Positions 55,961 to 64,000 of a DNA stretch of 64,000 nt are shown piece by piece. This stretch comes from Paenibacillus sp. 37 (GTDB taxonomy: Bacteria > Bacillota > Bacilli > Paenibacillales > Paenibacillaceae). The translations under genes and the position numbers were made by a program. The notes below the pieces were generated by a model. It was not told the origin of the DNA and did no database searches. It saw only the letters and a list, made by a program, of their open reading frames with translations. How positions within the stretch are numbered: position 1 is the stretch's first letter; every line of letters starts with the position of its first letter. Location of the stretch: contig NZ_CP043761.1 in assembly GCF_008386395.1 (NCBI RefSeq), positions 1,674,001 to 1,738,000 on the forward strand, read 5' to 3'.

Positions 55961-58003
55961 ATGAAGGTTATTCTTTCTACATTAAATGCAAAGTACATCC
56001 ATACCTCCTTGGCCTTGCGTTGTCTGAAGGCGTACAGTGAGAAGGATTTTGATATTGACCTGGCGGAGTATACGATCAAAGATCCAGTCATGAACATTGT
56101 GTCTGATCTATACCAGCGCGGCGCGGACGTGATTGGTTTCTCGTGTTACATCTGGAACATTGAAGAGACGATTAAGGTCATTGATAATCTGAAAAAGGTT
56201 ATGCCTGGCGTGAAAATTTTGCTGGGCGGGCCGGAGGTGTCCTACGACACGGAATATTGGATGAACCGGATTCCCAATGTGGATTTCATCGTGATGGGTG
56301 AAGGGGAAGAGACGCTGCATCAGCTGTTGACGGAGCTGGAAGGAAGTAAGAAGTTCCACTTCGTGTATGGACTGGCGTATCGCAAAGGGGAAGAGGTCAT
56401 TCTCATGCCAGGTCGGCCGAAAGCGGATCTGAACGATCTGCCGTCACCGCACCGATTTGAAGAGGATATTCCCGACCTCGGGAAGCGTGTGGTTTATTTT
56501 GAGACCAGCCGGGGCTGTCCGTTTAGTTGTCAGTTCTGTCTGTCCAGTATTGAGGTCGGCGTGCGGTATTACGATATTGAGCGGACGAAGTCGGACATTC
56601 TGTACCTGATTGAGAAGGGTGCGAAGCTGATCAAGTTTGTGGATCGGACGTTCAACATCAAGCGGGATTATGCGCTCGAAATGTTCAAATTCCTGATTGA
56701 GAATCATCAGGGGACGGTGTTCCAGTTTGAAATTACGGCGGACATTATGCGTCCCGAGGTACTGGATTATCTGGCAGAGAATGCGCCGCCTGGCACATTC
56801 CGGTTCGAGATCGGGGTTCAATCCACGAATGATCCGACAAATGAACTGGTGAAACGTCGCCAGAACTTTACGAAGCTAAGCCGCACGGTAAACAAAGTTA
56901 AAGCCAGCGGCAAAATCGACCAGCATCTGGATCTCATCGCCGGATTGCCGGAGGAAGATTACAATACGTTCCGCAAAACGTTTAACGATGTGTTTGCCTT
57001 GGGGCCGGAAGAGCTTCAGCTCGGATTCCTTAAAATGTTGCGTGGTACGGGTCTGCGTCTGGATGCGGAAAAATACAACTATACGTATATGGATCACGCG
57101 CCGTATGAGATTTTGGGTAGTGACGTGCTGCCGTTCAGCGACATTGTGCGCTTGAAGCGGCTGGAAGATGTGCTGGAGAAATACTGGAACGCACACCGGA
57201 TGGACTACACGCTGAAATATCTGATGGAGCAGGAGTTCAATTCGCCGTTTGATTTCTTCCAGGCGTTTGGGGATTACTGGGAGGGTCAGGGCTGGCAGAA
57301 GATTGGTCACCAACTGGAGGATCTGTTTACTCGTCTGCACAGCTTCCTGGAGTCGCGGAATACGCCGCATATGGATGTCGTGCTCGGCCTGATGAAGCTG
57401 GATTATTTCCTTGGCCACAAATACAAACCACGCAAAATCTGGTGGGAAGATCCGCTCCAGAAAGATCAGTGGGCGGGTTATATGAAAACGTTGGCTGAAC
57501 GTCCGGAAGACGTTCGTCTGCCACGTGTTGCCGGTGCCGCTGGCACGGCATGGCTGGAAAGCAGCGGCACGGGTCCGAGTGCCGCTGTGGCAAGTTCGGC
57601 TGCTGCCGGGGAGAACTCTGCCGCAGATGCGGCGGGTGTAATCGGCAGCGAAGCCGGGGGTGAAGCGTCGCTCACTTCGGGCGACGCAACAGGGTCCGCC
57701 GCGGATGGAGCGGCGGACGGGGAAGACGGCAACGCTTCGCGTGCGTTGCCGATGACCTCGGCCATGACCGCACAGACGGTCATGGGTGCCCGTGCTTTCG
57801 CCGACCTTGGTCTCGGCGAAAAGGAACTGCAGAAGCACACCGTACTGGATGTGCTTCCGTTCCGGCTTGAGCGTGTGCTAGCTGGCGCCAGCCCGCTTGC
57901 CGCGAAAGGCCGGACGCTGCTGGTCGTAGTGTACCAGCAGCATGAAGGGCAGCAGGCGCAGTATTACACGCTGCCGCTGGGAGAAGAAGCCGCTGCCATG
58001 TAG
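55961..58003 (+). CDS. B12-binding-domain radical SAM protein (DUF4080 type)
   Basis: 680 residues. The N-terminal B12-binding-like domain (about 1-140; GADVIGFSCYIWN, ILLGGPEVS) is followed by a radical SAM core with the [4Fe-4S] motif CPFSCQFC (Cys 186, 190, 193), FVDRTFNIKR and FEIGVQS, and a C-terminal DUF4080-like region. Residues about 525-595 are a low-complexity Ala/Gly/Ser/Asp insertion encoded by GC-rich DNA, before a conserved end (KHTVLDVLPFRLERVL). Reaction unknown; relatives include methyltransferases and methylthiotransferases. Confidence 0.92.
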   Translation: MKVILSTLNAKYIHTSLALRCLKAYSEKDFDIDLAEYTIKDPVMNIVSDLYQRGADVIGFSCYIWNIEETIKVIDNLKKVMPGVKILLGGPEVSYDTEYWMNRIPNVDFIVMGEGEETLHQLLTELEGSKKFHFVYGLAYRKGEEVILMPGRPKADLNDLPSPHRFEEDIPDLGKRVVYFETSRGCPFSCQFCLSSIEVGVRYYDIERTKSDILYLIEKGAKLIKFVDRTFNIKRDYALEMFKFLIENHQGTVFQFEITADIMRPEVLDYLAENAPPGTFRFEIGVQSTNDPTNELVKRRQNFTKLSRTVNKVKASGKIDQHLDLIAGLPEEDYNTFRKTFNDVFALGPEELQLGFLKMLRGTGLRLDAEKYNYTYMDHAPYEILGSDVLPFSDIVRLKRLEDVLEKYWNAHRMDYTLKYLMEQEFNSPFDFFQAFGDYWEGQGWQKIGHQLEDLFTRLHSFLESRNTPHMDVVLGLMKLDYFLGHKYKPRKIWWEDPLQKDQWAGYMKTLAERPEDVRLPRVAGAAGTAWLESSGTGPSAAVASSAAAGENSAADAAGVIGSEAGGEASLTSGDATGSAADGAADGEDGNASRALPMTSAMTAQTVMGARAFADLGLGEKELQKHTVLDVLPFRLERVLAGASPLAAKGRTLLVVVYQQHEGQQAQYYTLPLGEEAAAM

Positions 58004-58240
58004 GTGCAGCGGCCTTCCACAAGCTACATGGCCAACTGGCATGATGCAGAAGGGAGAGGTGCCACGGCTTTGGGGTCGTGGCACTTTATTGGCAGGCATC
58101 ACGGGTGATGCCTGCATTGATGAGCACCGCGTCAATGAACGTGGTGCATCCTCATAAGGTGCTTGCACCCATCGGGCGCAGCACCTCACCCTTACGCGGC
58201 TTGCCGTTGCATATGCCGCGCTCCCGCTTTACCTTTTCAA
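58004..58240 (+). repeat. family A hairpin-array repeat, copy 1
   Basis: Series of stems: GTGCCACG/CGTGGCAC (58059-58066, 58077-58084), GCAGGCATCA/TGATGCCTGC (58092-58101, 58106-58115), GCACCGCG/CGTGGTGC (58124-58131, 58140-58147), then an AGGTGCT/AGCACCT stem around 58158-58187, and a conserved 3' tail CGCGGCTTGCCGTTGCATA. It aligns along its whole length with 63650-63928. Confidence 0.8.
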
Positions 58241-58289
58241 CATCATATTTCCGAAACCATCGGAAGGTCATCTGATTCCCAAACGGGAT

Positions 58290-58310
58290 GAAGAATGATC
58301 TTCTTTTTTT
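58290..58310 (+). terminator. small terminator downstream of repeat A copy 1
   Basis: GAAGA-ATGA-TCTTC followed by seven T residues. It probably ends the radical SAM transcript, placing repeat A in its 3' untranslated region. Confidence 0.6.
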
Positions 58311-58363
58311 GTTTGCCAGTTACATAGAATCACATGTCGAATTCAGTCAAAGGAGTGTTTCGT

Positions 58364-58495
58364 ATGAATGATAAGACCAGAACCGAAGAGACAATCACTG
58401 TACCTAAAGGTTCAGCTGACTCACTACATGTCCATATTCCCTATAACGCTGTACATATTCAACACATTCGTCAGATATCGGGTAGACGAATTTAG
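58364..58495 (+). CDS. small open reading frame, 43 residues
   Basis: ATG with AAAGGAG 7 bases upstream; the product begins MNDKTRTEETITVPKG and ends QISGRRI. Not recognised; the strong ribosome site is the main support. It could be the truncated start of a lost gene, since it stops abruptly before the regulator's promoter region. Confidence 0.4.
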   Translation: MNDKTRTEETITVPKGSADSLHVHIPYNAVHIQHIRQISGRRI

Positions 58496-58641
58496 AGATC
58501 CATTCAGCGAAGCTAAACCTAGAATTCCACGATAACCTTCTGTATTGACGCCTGTACAATCATCAAGCCTCTAGGAGGCACTCGACCTTCTTCAAGGAAT
58601 ACCACAATCCCACCCAGTAACTTTGCGAATTACTTCTTGTG

Positions 58642-58660
58642 TAATATACTTAGTATATTA
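58642..58660. promoter_or_regulatory. palindromic operator at the regulator promoter
   Basis: TAATATAC-TTA-GTATATTA is a perfect 19-base palindrome. It overlaps a candidate -10 (TATACT 58645-58650) with TTGCGA 16 bases upstream. The same core recurs at 60038-60053. Predicted autoregulatory site of the adjacent GntR-LacI regulator. Confidence 0.7.
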
Positions 58661-58684
58661 ATATTATGATGTCAGGGTGGTTTT

Positions 58685-59809
58685 GTGGAATTGCATTTAT
58701 ATGAGCAGATATATAGCTATATTGTACAAGAGATTAAAGAAGGTCGCTTAAACGAAGGTGACCGGGTCTCTTCTGAAAAAGAGTTGGCTGAACAATTTGG
58801 CGTCAGTCGTATTACATCTAAAAAGGCTCTGGAGAAATTGGCAGATTCTGGGGTGATTAAACGAATACAAGGAAAAGGTTCATATGTAGCCGATGGTATC
58901 ATTGGAGGACAAGAACCGAAGCATTATTCAGAGGTAAGAACAACTTTGGTTCCTGAGGACGATAAGCGGGTGATCGGGTTTATTATACCGAATTTTTCTG
59001 ACGAGTTTGGCCTGGAACTTCTTAGATCGATGGAAAAGCGGAGTGCTGAGCATAATTATCAACTCGTTATTAAGCGAACTTGCGGGGATCGGGATGAGGA
59101 AAAACGTGCGATTGACTTATTTATTGGTTTAGGCATCAAAGGATTAATCGTGACCCCCATTCATGGTCAACACTATAATTCTGAACTGCTCCGACTTGTA
59201 TTAGATCGGTTTCCAATTGTTTTGGCCGATAGATATCTAAAAGGAATTCCGGTTTGTTCGGTTTACACAGACAATAAGAAAGCAGCCATGGATCTTACGC
59301 GTCATCTGATTAGCAAAGGTCATAAAAAAATTGCCTTTTTATCTCCGCCGGAAGAGAACACTTCAACATTGGAGGAAAGGCTGCTCGGATATACGTTTGC
59401 CTTCACCCAGGAAGGAATGAATTTGAACAAAAACTATGTATTGACGAACTTGAAGGGCACCCTTCCCAAGAACATAAATGGAACAGCGATTGAAAGTGAT
59501 AAAGAAACAGTAAAGCATTTTTTGAAACAACACCCTGATGTAAAGGCGTTTGTCGCATCGGAATTTCTAATAGCTACCATGCTGGCTCAAGTCATCCACT
59601 CGATGGGGAAATCTCTGGAGGAATACGAGATCGTTTGTTTCGACTCCCTGAACGATCACCTGGGTCAACCCATCTTCACTCATATTAAACAGGATGAGAA
59701 GCAGATGGGTGAATTGGCAGTGGATATGTTAATCTCTCAATTGCATGGAACAGCAGTTCCCGAGCTGAACATTATTAAACATCGTATGGTCGTGAAAAAT
59801 AACGGGTAG
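58685..59809 (+). CDS. GntR-LacI hybrid transcriptional regulator (AraR-like)
   Basis: 374 residues; GTG start after AGGGTGG. An N-terminal GntR-type winged helix (about 1-70; LAEQFGVSRITSKKALEKLADSGVI) is fused to a LacI/periplasmic-binding-type sugar sensor (about 90-374; RVIGFIIPNFSDEFGLELLR, KGLIVTPIH, ISKGHKKIAFLSP). This architecture is that of AraR, the arabinose repressor of Bacillus, and of related sugar regulators. Likely represses the downstream ABC importer and itself. Confidence 0.93.
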   Translation: MELHLYEQIYSYIVQEIKEGRLNEGDRVSSEKELAEQFGVSRITSKKALEKLADSGVIKRIQGKGSYVADGIIGGQEPKHYSEVRTTLVPEDDKRVIGFIIPNFSDEFGLELLRSMEKRSAEHNYQLVIKRTCGDRDEEKRAIDLFIGLGIKGLIVTPIHGQHYNSELLRLVLDRFPIVLADRYLKGIPVCSVYTDNKKAAMDLTRHLISKGHKKIAFLSPPEENTSTLEERLLGYTFAFTQEGMNLNKNYVLTNLKGTLPKNINGTAIESDKETVKHFLKQHPDVKAFVASEFLIATMLAQVIHSMGKSLEEYEIVCFDSLNDHLGQPIFTHIKQDEKQMGELAVDMLISQLHGTAVPELNIIKHRMVVKNNG

Positions 59810-59849
59810 GGTTTATACAAGTGCAGCTAAACCAAAGCAGTTGTTCAAA

Positions 59850-59889
59850 GTGTCGAGAAGTCCTGAGGGGCTTATCGGCACTTTTTTTG
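59850..59889 (+). terminator. intrinsic terminator of the regulator gene
   Basis: GTGTCGA pairs with TCGGCAC (one wobble), followed by seven T residues. Confidence 0.9.
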
Positions 59890-60013
59890 ATATCAGACAT
59901 ATAAACTTCGAAGCAGAGACCTTCCTGACCGGAGATTAACCAACCTTGAAACGTCGAATTCTATATCTAAATTATAGCCATACATCATGAATAGTGATGT
60001 CGTAATATTGCAA

Positions 60014-60056
60014 TTGACATGTTTTATGATGTCATATTAATATACTTAGTATAACT
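60014..60056 (+). promoter_or_regulatory. promoter and operator of the sugar ABC operon
   Basis: A -35 TTGACA (60014-60019) and -10-like TAATAT (60038-60043) are 18 bases apart. The -10 lies inside TAATATACTTAGTATAAC, which shares TAATATACTTAGTATA with the palindrome upstream of the regulator. TTATGATGTCA also occurs at both promoters. Binding of the regulator here would block initiation. Confidence 0.7.
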
Positions 60057-60124
60057 AGTGGGTTCCTATAAAAAATTCACGGTGTTCATCATTTTCTGAT
60101 TTTAATAGTTCATATCACCAGAGT

Positions 60125-60140
60125 TGTTAGCGCTTACATA
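60125..60140 (+). promoter_or_regulatory. cre site (CcpA binding)
   Basis: TTGTTAGCGCTTACAT fits the consensus WTGNNARCGNWWWCAW at every position. It lies downstream of the promoter and 80 bases before the start codon, consistent with a CcpA roadblock giving catabolite repression. Confidence 0.85.
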
Positions 60141-60221
60141 AGTTATGGATGATCAGAAAATGAAGTGGATCCTATAGGAATTCAAGTTAAACGAATTCAT
60201 TTAACTTAAGGGGGACTTTGA

Positions 60222-61523
60222 ATGAGGAGATCCAAAAGATTCGCATTTCCAATTCTTGTTTGCTTTCTGGTTATGGTACTACTTGTAACGGCTTGTTCAA
60301 CGAATGGAGGCTCTAGCGATCAGGCCGGAGAGGGGATTACAACGGTTACGATGTGGCATGGTCTTACCTCAATTGATTTAGATAATATGAATAAAGTCGT
60401 GAAGGCATTTGAAGAGAAAAACCCTACGATCAAAATGAATTTGGTTTATACAGAATCCAACGAGGGATCCGATCAGAAGCTGCTGACTGCAGTCGCAGGC
60501 GGCAATCCTCCTGACGTTGCACTATTCGACCGTTTTAAGGTCGGTACATGGGCTGCGCAAGGTTCTCTGACTGACTTATCCTCGATGGCAGCAGAATCCG
60601 GAATACGTAAGGAAATGTATTATCCATTTGCATGGGAGGAGTCCAGTTATCAAGGAAAGCTTTATGCAATGCCAATGGATACAGACTCTCGTCTGCTATT
60701 TTACAATAAGGATCATTTCAAAGAAGTGGGGTTGGATCCCAACAAACCACCACAAACGATCGCCGAGCTTGAAGCGGCCGCCGATAAGTTAACCATCAAG
60801 GAAGGTAAACGTTTCAAACGGATTGGGTTCATCCCATGGTATTCGCAAGGCTGGCTGTATACTTGGGGATGGGCATTTGGAGGAGAATTCCAGGATACTG
60901 CCACCGGCAAAATTACGGCAAATGATCCTAAAGTCGTGGAAGCGCTACAATGGATGACCGACTTCGGCAAAAAATACAATGTCGAGGATATTGCGGGATT
61001 CACAAGCGCAGCAGGAACGGAGGAAATGGATCCGTTCATTTCTGGTCAAGTCAGCATGAAGATAAGTGGAAACTTTACGGTGAAGGGTATCGAAAAATTT
61101 AAGCCGGATTTAAATTACGGTGTTGCACCCATACCGACCCCAACAGGTACTAATTTTACGACATGGTCGGGAGGCGGGTCCGCTATTATCCCTAAAGGCG
61201 CCAAGAACGTCGCTGCTGCTTGGAAATTCCTCGAATTCTTAGGGAAAGAAGAAGGGCAAACGTTATTAAACGCTGACTCTCAAATTTCCGTTATTGATTC
61301 GGTTAACGACAAATACGGTTACAAAGACGATCCGATTATGAAGGAATTTATTAATATTTTGCCCAATTCACACAACCGCCCAGTTATTCCTGAAGGACAA
61401 CTGCTGTGGAATGAGTTAGCTTCCGCTACGGAAAAGGCAACCCGCGGTAACGGTACTCCGAAAGAGAACCTGGATAGAGTAACAGAGACTGTTAATAAGG
61501 CTTTAGAAAAATACGACAAATAG
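60222..61523 (+). CDS. sugar ABC transporter substrate-binding lipoprotein
   Basis: 433 residues, family 1 extracellular solute-binding protein. Signal peptide with lipobox LVTAC (Cys 25), then TTVTMWHGLTSIDLDNMNK, AVAGGNPPDVALFDRF and a C-terminal GGGSAIIPKGAKN / AAWKFLEFL pattern typical of oligosaccharide or glycerol-phosphate type binding proteins. RBS AAGGGGGA. First gene of the importer operon; the exact sugar cannot be inferred. Confidence 0.94.
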   Translation: MRRSKRFAFPILVCFLVMVLLVTACSTNGGSSDQAGEGITTVTMWHGLTSIDLDNMNKVVKAFEEKNPTIKMNLVYTESNEGSDQKLLTAVAGGNPPDVALFDRFKVGTWAAQGSLTDLSSMAAESGIRKEMYYPFAWEESSYQGKLYAMPMDTDSRLLFYNKDHFKEVGLDPNKPPQTIAELEAAADKLTIKEGKRFKRIGFIPWYSQGWLYTWGWAFGGEFQDTATGKITANDPKVVEALQWMTDFGKKYNVEDIAGFTSAAGTEEMDPFISGQVSMKISGNFTVKGIEKFKPDLNYGVAPIPTPTGTNFTTWSGGGSAIIPKGAKNVAAAWKFLEFLGKEEGQTLLNADSQISVIDSVNDKYGYKDDPIMKEFINILPNSHNRPVIPEGQLLWNELASATEKATRGNGTPKENLDRVTETVNKALEKYDK

Positions 61524-61532
61524 AGTGCTCGG

Positions 61533-61564
61533 TAGGCAGGGAGCGAACTCTCTCTCCTTGCCTA
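61533..61564 (+). other. intercistronic hairpin after the binding-protein gene
   Basis: TAGGCAGGGAG (61533-61543) pairs with CTCCTTGCCTA (61554-61564), 11 pairs with one wobble and no T-run. Such hairpins often protect the binding-protein mRNA and allow its excess over the permeases. Confidence 0.75.
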
Positions 61565-61595
61565 TTCATGAATGACACTTGGAAGGAGAATGTAC

Positions 61596-62531
61596 ATGGT
61601 GAAACTGGCCGATCCAGTTCAAGTAAAAGCAATTCCATCGGCAAGTAAACGAGCACTCCACAGAACTAACGCGATTGGGTGGCTGTTTGCTTCACCTTGG
61701 GCTATAGGGCTGCTATGCTTTTATGCAATTCCGATGCTAATGTCCATCTACTTCAGCTTCACTACTTACAGCATTCTGCAGCCTGGTGAATTTATCGGAA
61801 TGAATAATTATAAAGAGCTTTTTCATGATCCTCTATTTTGGAAATCCATATACAACACGATTTATTTTACGGTATTTTTTGTTCCATTAAGTATATTTTT
61901 CGGTGTGGCACTCGCTATGATGTTGAATATGAAGGTCAAGGGGATGGCTGTATTCAGAACAATCTTTTTCTTACCTACTCTCGTGCCACAAGTGGCTCTG
62001 GCTGTTCTGTGGATGTGGCTGTTACATCCAAACTTCGGATTGGTGAACGGGATGTTAGCGAATATCGGTATCGATGGGCCCGCTTGGCTTGGTGGTGAGT
62101 CGTGGTCCAAGCCCTCTCTCATTCTGATGTCGCTTTGGGGTATTGGGCAAGCTGTCGTTATCTACCTTGCTGGATTAGGAGACATCCCTGAGGAGTACTA
62201 TGAAGCGGCGCAAATCGATGGAGCTAACTGGTTTCAGAAAACGAGAAAGGTAACCTTACCTTTGCTCACTCCCGTTATTTTCTACAACCTTGTCATGGGA
62301 ATGATTGGTGCATTCCAACAGTTTACTCTTCCCTATACATTGACCAAAGGGCAAGGAACTCCTGCAAATTCCATGACTTTTTACGTCATGTATTTATATG
62401 AGAACGGCTTCAGGTATTTCAAAATGGGTTATGCCTCCGCAATGGCCTGGATCTTATTTATTATCGTTATGGCATTAACCGGAATTATTTTTATTACGTC
62501 TAAACGCTGGGTTCATTATCAGGGGAAATAA
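61596..62531 (+). CDS. sugar ABC transporter permease 1 (MalF/UgpA type)
   Basis: 311 residues; ATG 61596 is 8 or so bases after AAGGAG, whereas the nearer ATG 61590 is too close. Six transmembrane segments; the EAA loop EEYYEAAQIDGANWFQKTRKVTLPLL contacts the ATPase (shown in fragments EAAQIDGA and TLPLL). Pairs with the next permease. Confidence 0.94.
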   Translation: MVKLADPVQVKAIPSASKRALHRTNAIGWLFASPWAIGLLCFYAIPMLMSIYFSFTTYSILQPGEFIGMNNYKELFHDPLFWKSIYNTIYFTVFFVPLSIFFGVALAMMLNMKVKGMAVFRTIFFLPTLVPQVALAVLWMWLLHPNFGLVNGMLANIGIDGPAWLGGESWSKPSLILMSLWGIGQAVVIYLAGLGDIPEEYYEAAQIDGANWFQKTRKVTLPLLTPVIFYNLVMGMIGAFQQFTLPYTLTKGQGTPANSMTFYVMYLYENGFRYFKMGYASAMAWILFIIVMALTGIIFITSKRWVHYQGK

Positions 62532-62548
62532 GGAGGAGGAAGTAAGGG

Positions 62549-63385
62549 ATGAATCCTACCGCTATCAAAAGAATCAATCGTGCCTTAGCCTATGTATGTC
62601 TAATTGTTGCTTCTGCATTTTTCATGATTCCGTTCATTTGGCTGCTTTCGACTTCTCTTAAACCACTCACACAAATCTTTACATTCCCACCAGAGTGGAT
62701 TCCGCGTCCAATTCTGTGGAGTAATTATTCCCGTGCTGTTGAGTATATCCCTTTCTGGACATATCTGAAAAACACGGCGATTATAACTATTGTTAGTACG
62801 CTTGGTGTGATCATATCCTGTCCCTTGGTTGCATATAGTTTTGCCAAGTTAGAGTACCGTGGGAGAGGTATACTTTTCTTTGTTACCCTTGCTGTTATGA
62901 TGATCCCCGGACAGGTGACCATGATTCCTCTATTCCTGTTGTTTACTAAATTAGGTTGGGTAGGAACACCTCTTCCACTGATTGTACCCCAATTTTTTGG
63001 AGTGCCCATTTACATTTTTCTGTTGCGTCAGTTTTTCATGGGACTGCCTGATGCCCTGCGCGAAGCGGCCCGCTTAGACGGCGCTAGTGAGTTCCGCATA
63101 TATTTACAGATCATGTTTCCACTAGCCAAATCCGCCGTATTAGCCGTGGCATTGTTTCAATTTATGGGGAGCTGGACTGATTTCATGGGCCCCTTGCTTT
63201 ATTTAACCAATGAACCATCTTACACGGTTTCGCTCGGATTGCAGCAATTTCAGAGTCAAAAGGGATCCGAATGGGGTCTATTAATGGCGGTATCCACCTT
63301 GATGACATTACCTATTATTGTTCTATTCTTTTTTCTTCAAAAGACGTTTATTAGCGGCATTACATTTAGCGGTATAAAAGGTTGA
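62549..63385 (+). CDS. sugar ABC transporter permease 2 (MalG/UgpE type)
   Basis: 278 residues, six transmembrane segments; FMIPFIWLLSTSLKP at the N terminus and the EAA loop DALREAARLDGASEFRIY match the family. RBS GGAGGAGG. No ATPase or glycosidase gene follows in the window, so the importer must use a shared MsmX-type ATPase encoded elsewhere. Confidence 0.94.
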   Translation: MNPTAIKRINRALAYVCLIVASAFFMIPFIWLLSTSLKPLTQIFTFPPEWIPRPILWSNYSRAVEYIPFWTYLKNTAIITIVSTLGVIISCPLVAYSFAKLEYRGRGILFFVTLAVMMIPGQVTMIPLFLLFTKLGWVGTPLPLIVPQFFGVPIYIFLLRQFFMGLPDALREAARLDGASEFRIYLQIMFPLAKSAVLAVALFQFMGSWTDFMGPLLYLTNEPSYTVSLGLQQFQSQKGSEWGLLMAVSTLMTLPIIVLFFFLQKTFISGITFSGIKG

Positions 63386-63649
63386 ACATCATTTGTATGA
63401 ATTAAGCTCCAGCGATGCGGAACCCCAGGGATGTTAAGACGGACCATTCCGCGACATGGATCGGCTGTTATGGACCCACAGGCATCAATGGCATTATCGA
63501 TCAGATCGCTCAGGCTCTGTTGGCTTGAGAGGCAGCTTTTAGATGAGGAGAAACATCCAGCTCGTGGTCTGTTCCCTAAGTCGTAAATGATTAGCATAGC
63601 CCCATTGTTAAAATTGTAAAATCGAAAGAAAACGTTATGCTGCACCTAT
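63386..63649 (+). other. gap after the importer, with a possible 37-codon remnant
   Basis: ATG 63415 to TGA 63528 reads MRNPRDVKTDHSATWIGCYG and on to IIDQIAQALLA, without a ribosome site. It might be the 3' remnant of a cassette gene deleted next to repeat A; not recognised. The rest is featureless. Confidence 0.3.
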
Positions 63650-63928
63650 GGGATGCAGCAGCGTAACACAAGCTGCATGGCCGATTGGCATTATGCAGCA
63701 GGAGGAAGCGCCACGACGATGAGGTCGCGGCGCTTTTTTGCGTGCATCACGGCGCAGCTATCGTGATGCACCAAGTGTTGCCATCATGCAAGTGTGCTCG
63801 TGATGGCAGCATGAGCACCGCGCTAATGCACGCGGTGCAACCTCATGAGGTGCTGCCCATTGGGCGCAGCACCTCATCCAGACGCGGCTTGCCATTGCAT
63901 AAGCAGCGCTCCGTTTCACCTTTTACAA
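63650..63928 (+). repeat. family A hairpin-array repeat, copy 2
   Basis: Stems: AGCGCC/GGCGCT (63707-63712, 63729-63734), GTGCATCACG/CGTGATGCAC (63742-63751, 63762-63771), TGCCATCA/TGATGGCA (63779-63786, 63801-63808; extra relative to copy 1), GCACCGCG/CGCGGTGC (63815-63822, 63831-63838), TGAGGTGCTG/CAGCACCTCA (63846-63855, 63867-63876), then GACGCGGCTTGCCATTGCAT. Same orientation as copy 1. Confidence 0.8.
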
Positions 63929-63966
63929 CACTAAAAGCATCATTTAAATCGGAGAAAACAACATGA

Positions 63967-64000
63967 TATAATCAAAGCAAAACGGATCAAGGCAGGAGAG
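63967..64000 (+). promoter_or_regulatory. promoter and ribosome site of the next gene
   Basis: TATAAT at 63967-63972 is a perfect -10 box, with only a weak TTTAAA at 63943-63948 upstream. The window ends in GGCAGGAGAG, a likely Shine-Dalgarno for a plus-strand gene starting just outside. Confidence 0.6.

What the first reader, a model, noticed from the sequence alone, without database searches (positions are those of the whole stretch)
58004..63928. A hairpin-array repeat whose stems covary between two copies
Copies at 58004-58240 and 63650-63928 keep the same order of stem-loops although the paired bases differ. GTGCCACG/CGTGGCAC becomes GCGCCACG/CGCGGCGC (a U-A to C-G change in one pair, with an A-C mismatch elsewhere). 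GCAGGCATCA/TGATGCCTGC becomes GTGCATCACG/CGTGATGCAC. GCACCGCG/CGTGGTGC becomes GCACCGCG/CGCGGTGC. The imperfect AGGTGCT stem becomes a perfect 10-pair stem. Copy 2 has one additional hairpin, as if stems are gained or lost as modules. Conserved single-stranded links and a conserved 3' tail separate the stems. Base-pair maintenance suggests selection on folded RNA or DNA. I know no named family for it.
Basis: partly seen in the sequence, partly recalled or inferred. Interest (0 to 1): 0.78.

Follow-up and report, generated by a model that had tools for sequence, protein, structure and literature searches.

The report
Phased DNA-hairpin array beside an integron
Two stretches of tightly spaced hairpins in a Paenibacillus chromosome are parts of a regular hairpin array that runs through the end of a gene and stops at the edge of a gene-capturing system (an integron), and the matching of the hairpin arms looks more like a property of the DNA than of an RNA.

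Summary
Copy 1 is the end of a phased palindrome array: inverted repeats of ~26 nt every ~35 nt, running through the last ~440 nt of a B12/radical-SAM (DUF4080) gene, across its stop codon, into the 3' flank. The coding part is in all 48 genomes of one Paenibacillus clade (P. amylolyticus group); the other 27 genus genomes have at most one such coding hairpin. Stems are constrained: four-fold-site diversity 0.023 against 0.251 upstream. Covariation is real but modest: 4 of 61 coding and 4 of 29 flank pairs change on both sides. G-U and A-C mismatches are equal in the aligned stems, so I prefer DNA-level pairing to RNA; looser counts lean mildly to G-U, so this is not settled.

The array ends at a tyrosine recombinase (34 of 48 clade genomes; a remnant here) heading a chromosomal integron with attI core, attC sites and cassette chaining (23 of 31). 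attC matches occur in 74 of 75 genus genomes. Copy 2 sits where a cassette's attC should be. The array is no general integron part: 63 of 80 related recombinase loci lack it. Its job is inferred. My searches found no paper describing either.

The parts
55961..58003 (+). B12-binding radical SAM protein with DUF4080 domain, 680 aa; its last ~440 nt are palindromic
   Evidence: ORF, Pfam PF13311, PF02310, PF04055; present in 75 of 75 genus genomes
57562..58013 (.). coding part of the array: hairpins 57562-57587, 57665-57687, 57694-57718, 57727-57751, 57762-57785, 57796-57821, 57832-57857, 57916-57941, 57989-58013 (the last spans the stop codon)
   Evidence: coordinates less 1,674,000; folds; 7-10 coding hairpins in 46 of 46 intact clade A genomes, 0-1 in 27 clade B genomes
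58014..58245 (.). copy 1, flank part of the array; hairpins at about 58059-58084, 58092-58115, 58124-58147, 58156-58187, 58194-58222
58248..58312 (+). leader or terminator-like element that precedes the recombinase gene (TTCCGAAA...ATCGGAAGG type), degraded here
   Evidence: by eye; conserved before recombinase copies of clade A and G013; not flagged by the terminator scan
58364..58486 (+). remnant of the integron recombinase gene (about residues 1-41)
   Evidence: tblastn, 58% identity
58685..63385 (+). module between the two copies: GntR/LacI-type regulator (58685-59809), solute-binding protein (60222-61523), two permeases (61572-62531, 62549-63385)
63636..63935 (.). copy 2 of the array; hairpins 63638-63660, 63672-63699, 63706-63735, 63742-63771, 63779-63808, 63815-63838, 63845-63877, about 63882-63909
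63943..63972 (+). promoter-like site (TTTAAA, 18 nt, TATAAT) before a cassette gene that starts at window position 64010, just outside
   Evidence: 18 such sites found, 10.8 expected in the region; gene start

Best explanation
The two copies belong to a phased array of inverted repeats that arose in the ancestor of the P. amylolyticus group over the 3' end of the DUF4080 gene and its flank. Shown: ~35-nt spacing; presence in the clade and absence outside; low silent-site diversity in stems; some coupled two-sided changes; gain and loss of whole units; equal numbers of G-U and A-C mismatches in the aligned stems; position at the edge of a chromosomal integron; a second copy at a cassette boundary; one genome in which the two copies are fused with no recombinase between. 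Inferred: what is kept is the ability of the DNA to pair with itself (cruciform or single-stranded hairpins on either strand), not a folded RNA, and the array works as a structured DNA boundary between the housekeeping gene and the integron, where direct copies can recombine. Whether selection alone or also template-switch correction keeps the arms equal is open.
For: Phasing: 355 of 534 centre gaps in the 30-38 nt bins, 115 more at 60-92. Codon-shuffle control: 6.8 coding hairpins of 8+ pairs per genome v 0.69 in 920 shuffles. Four-fold diversity 0.023 in 23 stem sites, 0.095 in 43 non-stem sites of the same region, 0.251 in 210 upstream sites; stem v upstream P 4e-10, stem v non-stem P 0.014. 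Stem sites whose partner is a first codon position: 0.000 (9 sites); partner a third position: 0.032 (11 sites). Two-sided changes in 4 of 61 coding pairs (4 of 500 shuffles) and 4 of 29 flank pairs (6 of 500). Strand symmetry 12:12 and 18:16. Recombinase 3' of DUF4080 in 34 of 48 clade A and 0 of 27 clade B genomes. Copy 2 in place of an attC. Fused array in G028.
Against: Looser mismatch counts lean to G-U. Shuffle controls ignore relatedness, and the array is one evolutionary event, so clade counts are not independent. The whole region, not only stems, has low silent diversity (0.095 v 0.251), which recent exchange between species could also cause. The array does not accompany related recombinases elsewhere, so a role in the integron is not implied. 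No direct evidence that the DNA folds in the cell.
Confidence: 0.4

Rival explanations
1. A folded RNA: the end of the DUF4080 transcript is a chain of hairpins that protects, processes or terminates the mRNA, or yields a stable 3'-derived RNA.
For: The primary array is co-oriented with the gene and runs from coding sequence into the 3' flank; RNA fold z -5.5 and -7.4; silent-site constraint would fit RNA as well; loose mismatch counts lean to G-U.
Against: Equal G-U and A-C in aligned stems. Copy 2 keeps good stems away from DUF4080. By eye a hairpin followed by six T lies in the middle of copy 2 (63706-63739), but the terminator scan did not flag it, so this counts little. No Rfam match.
Confidence: 0.25
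2. A palindromic tract without function: units arise and are kept perfect by template switching or gene conversion between arms, helped by recombination in an integron neighbourhood.
For: Palindromes with arms kept equal are known in hairworm mitochondrial genes, where the authors discuss such conversion (PMC6649704, abstract and Discussion read). Mismatches are symmetric. Coupled-arm pattern of silent sites. A coupled missense change (28 A-U, 17 G-C, no exception).
Against: Regular ~35-nt spacing inside a conserved domain is hard to get this way. Stem silent sites are less diverse than non-stem sites (P 0.014); for the 11 sites with a third-position partner alone (0.032) I did not test the difference from 0.095.
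Confidence: 0.22
3. The units are non-canonical binding or recombination sites of the integron recombinase, read by shape.
For: The array ends 134-471 nt before recombinase homology in 34 of 48 clade A genomes; integron recombinases act on folded hairpins (bottom strand of attC, abstract of PMC2727003 seen in the listing); copy 2 stands in place of an attC. Arms of ~9 and centre of ~8 resemble a tyrosine-recombinase core in size (recalled).
Against: No attC match in the window; 63 of 80 recombinase loci, including second copies in the same clade, have no such array 5' of the gene; the attI core lies on the other side of the gene.
Confidence: 0.1

Closest known systems
Coding palindromes of nematomorph mitochondrial genes (PMC6649704)
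   Same: Perfect inverted repeats inside functional coding sequence; arms stay matched; units gained and lost
   Different: There long repeats (up to 284 bp) scattered over mitochondrial genes; here ~26-nt units, evenly spaced, in one gene end and its flank, in a bacterial chromosome
Rickettsia palindromic elements (recalled; mentioned in PMC6649704)
   Same: Palindromes within open reading frames of a bacterium, adding residues in frame
   Different: RPEs are dispersed copies of one element that lose repeat identity; here units differ in sequence, sit at one locus and also occupy a conserved domain without insertion
REP/BIME repeats (recalled)
   Same: Short palindromic units in clusters
   Different: Only two places in the genome by blastn, and the units lie in coding sequence
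Integron attC sites
   Same: Hairpin-rich, variable in sequence, in the same chromosomal region; copy 2 stands in an attC position
   Different: Array units lack the R and L boxes; the attC model has no match in the window
Integron integrase IntI4, PDB 2a3v (for the neighbouring recombinase)
   Same: Best profile match in the PDB, 5.8e-47, closely followed by XerA-like 4a8e, 1.6e-46 (the single sequence ranks 4a8e first)
   Different: IntI4 residues 183-239 face only ~15 residues of the recombinase; it has ~100 extra N-terminal residues

Membership tests
Integron (neighbouring system, not the array) | tyrosine recombinase of the integron type | tested here: inconclusive
   PF00589 and PF13495; below both model cut-offs: NF040815 216 v 220 bits, TIGR02249 203 v 265
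Integron (neighbouring system, not the array) | IntI-specific extra segment (recalled as defining) between the catalytic motifs | tested here: not met
   IntI4 183-239 unmatched in both alignments
Integron (neighbouring system, not the array) | attC sites with R'', L'', L', R' boxes and variable middle | tested here: met
   model matches in 74 of 75 genus genomes at E 1e-4, four of them at E 1e-8 or weaker
Integron (neighbouring system, not the array) | cassette chain: R'' complementary to the core at the start of its own cassette | tested here: met
   23 of 31 consecutive pairs, v 3 of 31 for the same-site core and 1.85 (maximum 7) at random
Integron (neighbouring system, not the array) | attI next to the recombinase gene | tested here: met
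   core at a fixed distance; matches first R'' in 8 of 10 loci with an attC half-site, of 15 examined
Integron (neighbouring system, not the array) | recombination activity | not testable with these tools
   needs an assay
attC site (the array units) | match to the attC model | tested here: not met
   window was among 41 sources and has no match at E 0.01
REP/BIME or other dispersed repeat | many copies over the genome | tested here: not met
   two places in the own genome by blastn; RAYT genes were not searched
Rickettsia-type palindromic elements | one element consensus inserted in many genes | tested here: not met
   array-like clusters in none of 16 control regions away from attC clusters and one of four near them; a whole-genome hairpin scan was not possible
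Known structured RNA | Rfam match at gathering score | tested here: not met
   0 matches in the window
Structured RNA in general | G-U tolerated over A-C in stems | tested here: inconclusive
   12:12 and 18:16 cells; 28:18, 10:6, 23:14
Structured RNA in general | stable transcript | not testable with these tools
   no RNA-seq on hand

The most novel reading that the evidence does not exclude
The array is a structural DNA module of a Bacillota integron platform: shape-recognised folded-DNA units that anchor the fixed end of the platform and serve as recombination points, partly written into a housekeeping gene by choice of codons, in an integron whose integrase lacks most of the IntI-specific segment.
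Probability: 0.12. Interest if true: 0.92.

Novelty: new variant of a known kind. Interest (0 to 1): 0.7.

Why it matters
A bacterial gene whose silent sites are held so that its DNA keeps a ladder of evenly spaced palindromes is unusual; the nearest precedent I found is in hairworm mitochondria. Close relatives without the array make selection on nucleic-acid structure inside coding sequence directly testable. [quoted passage not shown]

Tried and rejected
Considered and dropped: a dispersed repeat (two genomic places); a known RNA family; array units as attC sites; the array as a general part of these integrons (17 of 80 recombinase loci have four or more clustered hairpins within 1500 nt 5' of the gene, all 17 Paenibacillus; 63 do not); an intrinsic terminator inside copy 2 as an argument against RNA (seen by eye, not flagged by the scan, which found 4 terminator-like sites in 57480-64000 against 7.0 in shuffles, none on the + strand of the array).

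Led nowhere: automatic stem picking on the coding alignment mixed in long-range chance stems; its counts are not used. The leader pattern matched nothing, so only its printed flanks were used. In one search the printed list of genomes without recombinase is empty and the distance list holds 14 placeholders because of a scripting slip; the counts were formed before it. The AlphaFold model of the recombinase (mean pLDDT 76, pTM 0.48) was not searched further.

Rows dropped: coding alignment A3 has 45 of 48 clade A genomes (without G054, frameshifted; G073, Ns; one identical row). Flank alignment A4 has 23 of the 26 flank references (two fused longer arrays and one short one left out) plus copy 2; 22 clade genomes gave no reference. 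One search used 31 of 46 genes, those held complete. One search kept 76 of 150 aligned attC rows. The cassette-chain test used a strict pattern and so saw only part of the sites.
Full report
WHAT WAS CHECKED. Both copies exist, fold far better than shuffles as RNA and match no Rfam family at gathering score. With copy 2 as query, blastn gives matches in 44 of 75 genus genomes, 1-6 per genome; in most genomes with several matches these lie within about 60 kb on one strand (exceptions include a weak distant match in G054, an opposite-strand piece in G055 and matches on two contigs in G043).

THE ARRAY IS LARGER THAN REPORTED. Copy 1 follows a B12/radical-SAM DUF4080 gene. Folding showed back-to-back hairpins through the last ~440 nt of that gene and across its stop codon. 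All 75 genus genomes have the gene. In 48 (clade A) the protein carries an Ala/Gly/Ser-rich stretch, and both that stretch and the C-terminal domain are palindromic: 7-10 perfect coding hairpins of at least 7 pairs in 46 genomes, 7 in G073 (with Ns), 5 in G054 (frameshift). Of the other 27 (clade B) 26 have none and one has one. In 17 loci of other genera (18 taken, one without the anchor motif) there were 0-1. In the flank, units come and go: G003, G005, G029, G051, G053 and G069 pass almost directly from the stop codon to the recombinase leader, G028 has nine hairpins in 500 nt.

PHASING. In 46 clade A arrays 355 of 534 centre-to-centre gaps fall in the 30-38 nt bins and 115 more at 60-92; stems are most often 9 bp, loops 8, median hairpin 26 and linker 10 nt. 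The phasing also holds inside the C-terminal domain, where relatives show no length change, so tandem duplication alone cannot explain it there (inference).

CONSTRAINT AND COVARIATION. Shuffling synonymous codons leaves 0.69 hairpins of 8 or more pairs per coding tail against 6.8 observed. Four-fold-site diversity in 31 full genes is 0.251 upstream, 0.095 in non-stem sites of the array region and 0.023 in stems. In the coding alignment (45 sequences, 61 pairs) 99.2% of cells pair, 47 pairs never vary and four change on both sides, a number reached by 4 of 500 shuffles. One of the four couples a missense site (Ala/Thr) to a silent one: 28 A-U, 17 G-C, no exception. In the flank alignment (24 sequences, 21 distinct, 29 pairs) 95.5% of cells pair and four pairs change on both sides (6 of 500 shuffles). 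The shuffles do not correct for relatedness. Part of that constraint is regional: non-stem sites are also low, and exchange between species near an integron could contribute.

DNA OR RNA? A sense-strand RNA should tolerate G-U and avoid A-C. In aligned stems they are equal: 12 v 12 cells (8 v 7 positions) coding, 18 v 16 (7 v 7) flank. Controls go the expected way: clade B 3' flanks 15 v 5 contexts (P 0.02); attC sites on the top strand 29 v 46 cells, though 16 v 16 positions. Looser per-stem counts of the array give G-U: A-C 28:18 and 10:6, 23:14, and 13:14 and 9:4; none is significant at 5% where tested (P 0.09, 0.23, 0.09). Silent stem sites paired with a first codon position are frozen (9 sites, 0.000), those paired with a third position vary slightly (11 sites, 0.032), as coupled arms would. 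I favour DNA-level pairing with moderate confidence, and state that RNA is not excluded.

THE NEIGHBOUR IS AN INTEGRON. In clade A a leader element and a 371-aa tyrosine recombinase or its remains follow: homology starts 134-471 nt past the DUF4080 stop in 34 of 48 genomes, 25 of them with at least 340 residues covered; in clade B 0 of 27. In this window a remnant is left (58364-58486). The recombinase profile matches IntI4 best in the PDB, closely followed by a XerA-like enzyme (the single sequence ranks them the other way). It is below the NCBI cut-offs for XerA/integron (216 v 220 bits) and integron integrase (203 v 265), lacks most of the segment facing IntI4 183-239 and has ~100 extra N-terminal residues. 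Downstream lie genes separated by sites of ~96 nt or longer with R''-L''-variable middle-L'-R'; in 18 of them 9 of 32 pairs change on both sides (140 of 500 shuffles reach that count, but 0 of 500 reach the 32 cells). The model matches 74 of 75 genus genomes and, in a family sample, 73 of 148 genomes and 15 of 19 genera. The decisive test is the chain: R'' of a site is fully complementary to the core at the start of its own cassette in 23 of 31 consecutive pairs, against 3 of 31 for the core of the same site and 1.85 at random. Of 15 recombinase loci, 10 had an attC half-site downstream, and in 8 the attI core at a fixed distance 3' of the recombinase is complementary to the first R''; G025 and the second copy of G001 fail. 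Of eight cassette-region proteins six have no Pfam match, one is a protein kinase domain, one DUF2716. Named relatives of the recombinase include Saccharibacillus, Cohnella and clostridia (capped list); attC matches on the + strand follow it in 25 of 55 of these loci by my count, all Paenibacillaceae but one weak match in Acididesulfobacillus.

HOW THE COPIES RELATE. The gene that starts just after copy 2 (MDDFTKKRIQKIMD...; interrupted after 25 codons in this genome) is a cassette gene: in G013, G006 and G033 it follows an attC right half (model matches in G013 and G033, by eye in G006), whereas here and in G028, G051, G032 and G055 the array stands in that place. In G032 and G067 the left edge of copy 2 reads as an attC R'' with its spacer (by eye). 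In G028 the DUF4080 array runs straight into the copy-2 type array and that cassette gene, and the genome has no close match to this recombinase: the state expected after recombination between direct copies, though the reverse order of events is not excluded. G055 holds what looks by eye like a decayed duplicate of DUF4080 end, array and recombinase.

WHAT IT IS NOT. Array units are not attC sites, and the array does not accompany this recombinase in general (17 of 80 loci). It is a property of the DUF4080 end in one clade, at an integron's edge.

LITERATURE. Searches for integrons with Paenibacillus, Paenibacillaceae or Firmicutes terms (listings seen) showed no title or abstract start that describes an integron in Paenibacillus. 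Passages of PMC4909258 and PMC7691350 that name Paenibacillus concern distant homologues; in the P. vortex genome paper the only mention of integrons is in the reference list (passages). IntegronFinder 2.0 (PMC9024848, passages) and The Natural History of Integrons (PMC8618304, one passage, which lists Firmicutes among phyla with integrons) give the background. One search covered palindromes in genes; of PMC6649704 I read abstract and Discussion. Subscription papers and preprints were not searchable, so novelty is provisional.

Noticed in passing
G034:C1:1655799-1680400; G001:C1:426832-437100 and 463763-480000; G200:C1:3486522-3505402; remnant in window 58364-58486: Chromosomal integrons in Paenibacillaceae: recombinase, attI core, attC sites, cassette chain. 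The recombinase lacks most of the IntI-specific segment.
   Followed up: partly
   Followed up: no
58248-58312; G001:C1:463640-463720; L192:9859: A leader with TTCCGAAAGCATCGGAAGG followed by a terminator-like stem precedes recombinase genes in clade A, including second copies, and in G013.
   Followed up: no
58642-58657 and 60038-60053: TAATATACTTAGTATA occurs before the GntR/LacI-type regulator and again before the solute-binding protein gene; it looks like the operator of that regulator.
   Followed up: no
G000:C1:1758912-1759715 and 1765906-1766129: Two further groups of recombinase fragments ~27 and ~34 kb downstream of DUF4080; attC sites follow the second at 1767717 and 1769936.
   Followed up: partly
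G054:C1:2368501-2370204 and onward (L117): A clade A genome in which the DUF4080 frame is broken within the array region, while the downstream palindromes are still there.
   Followed up: no
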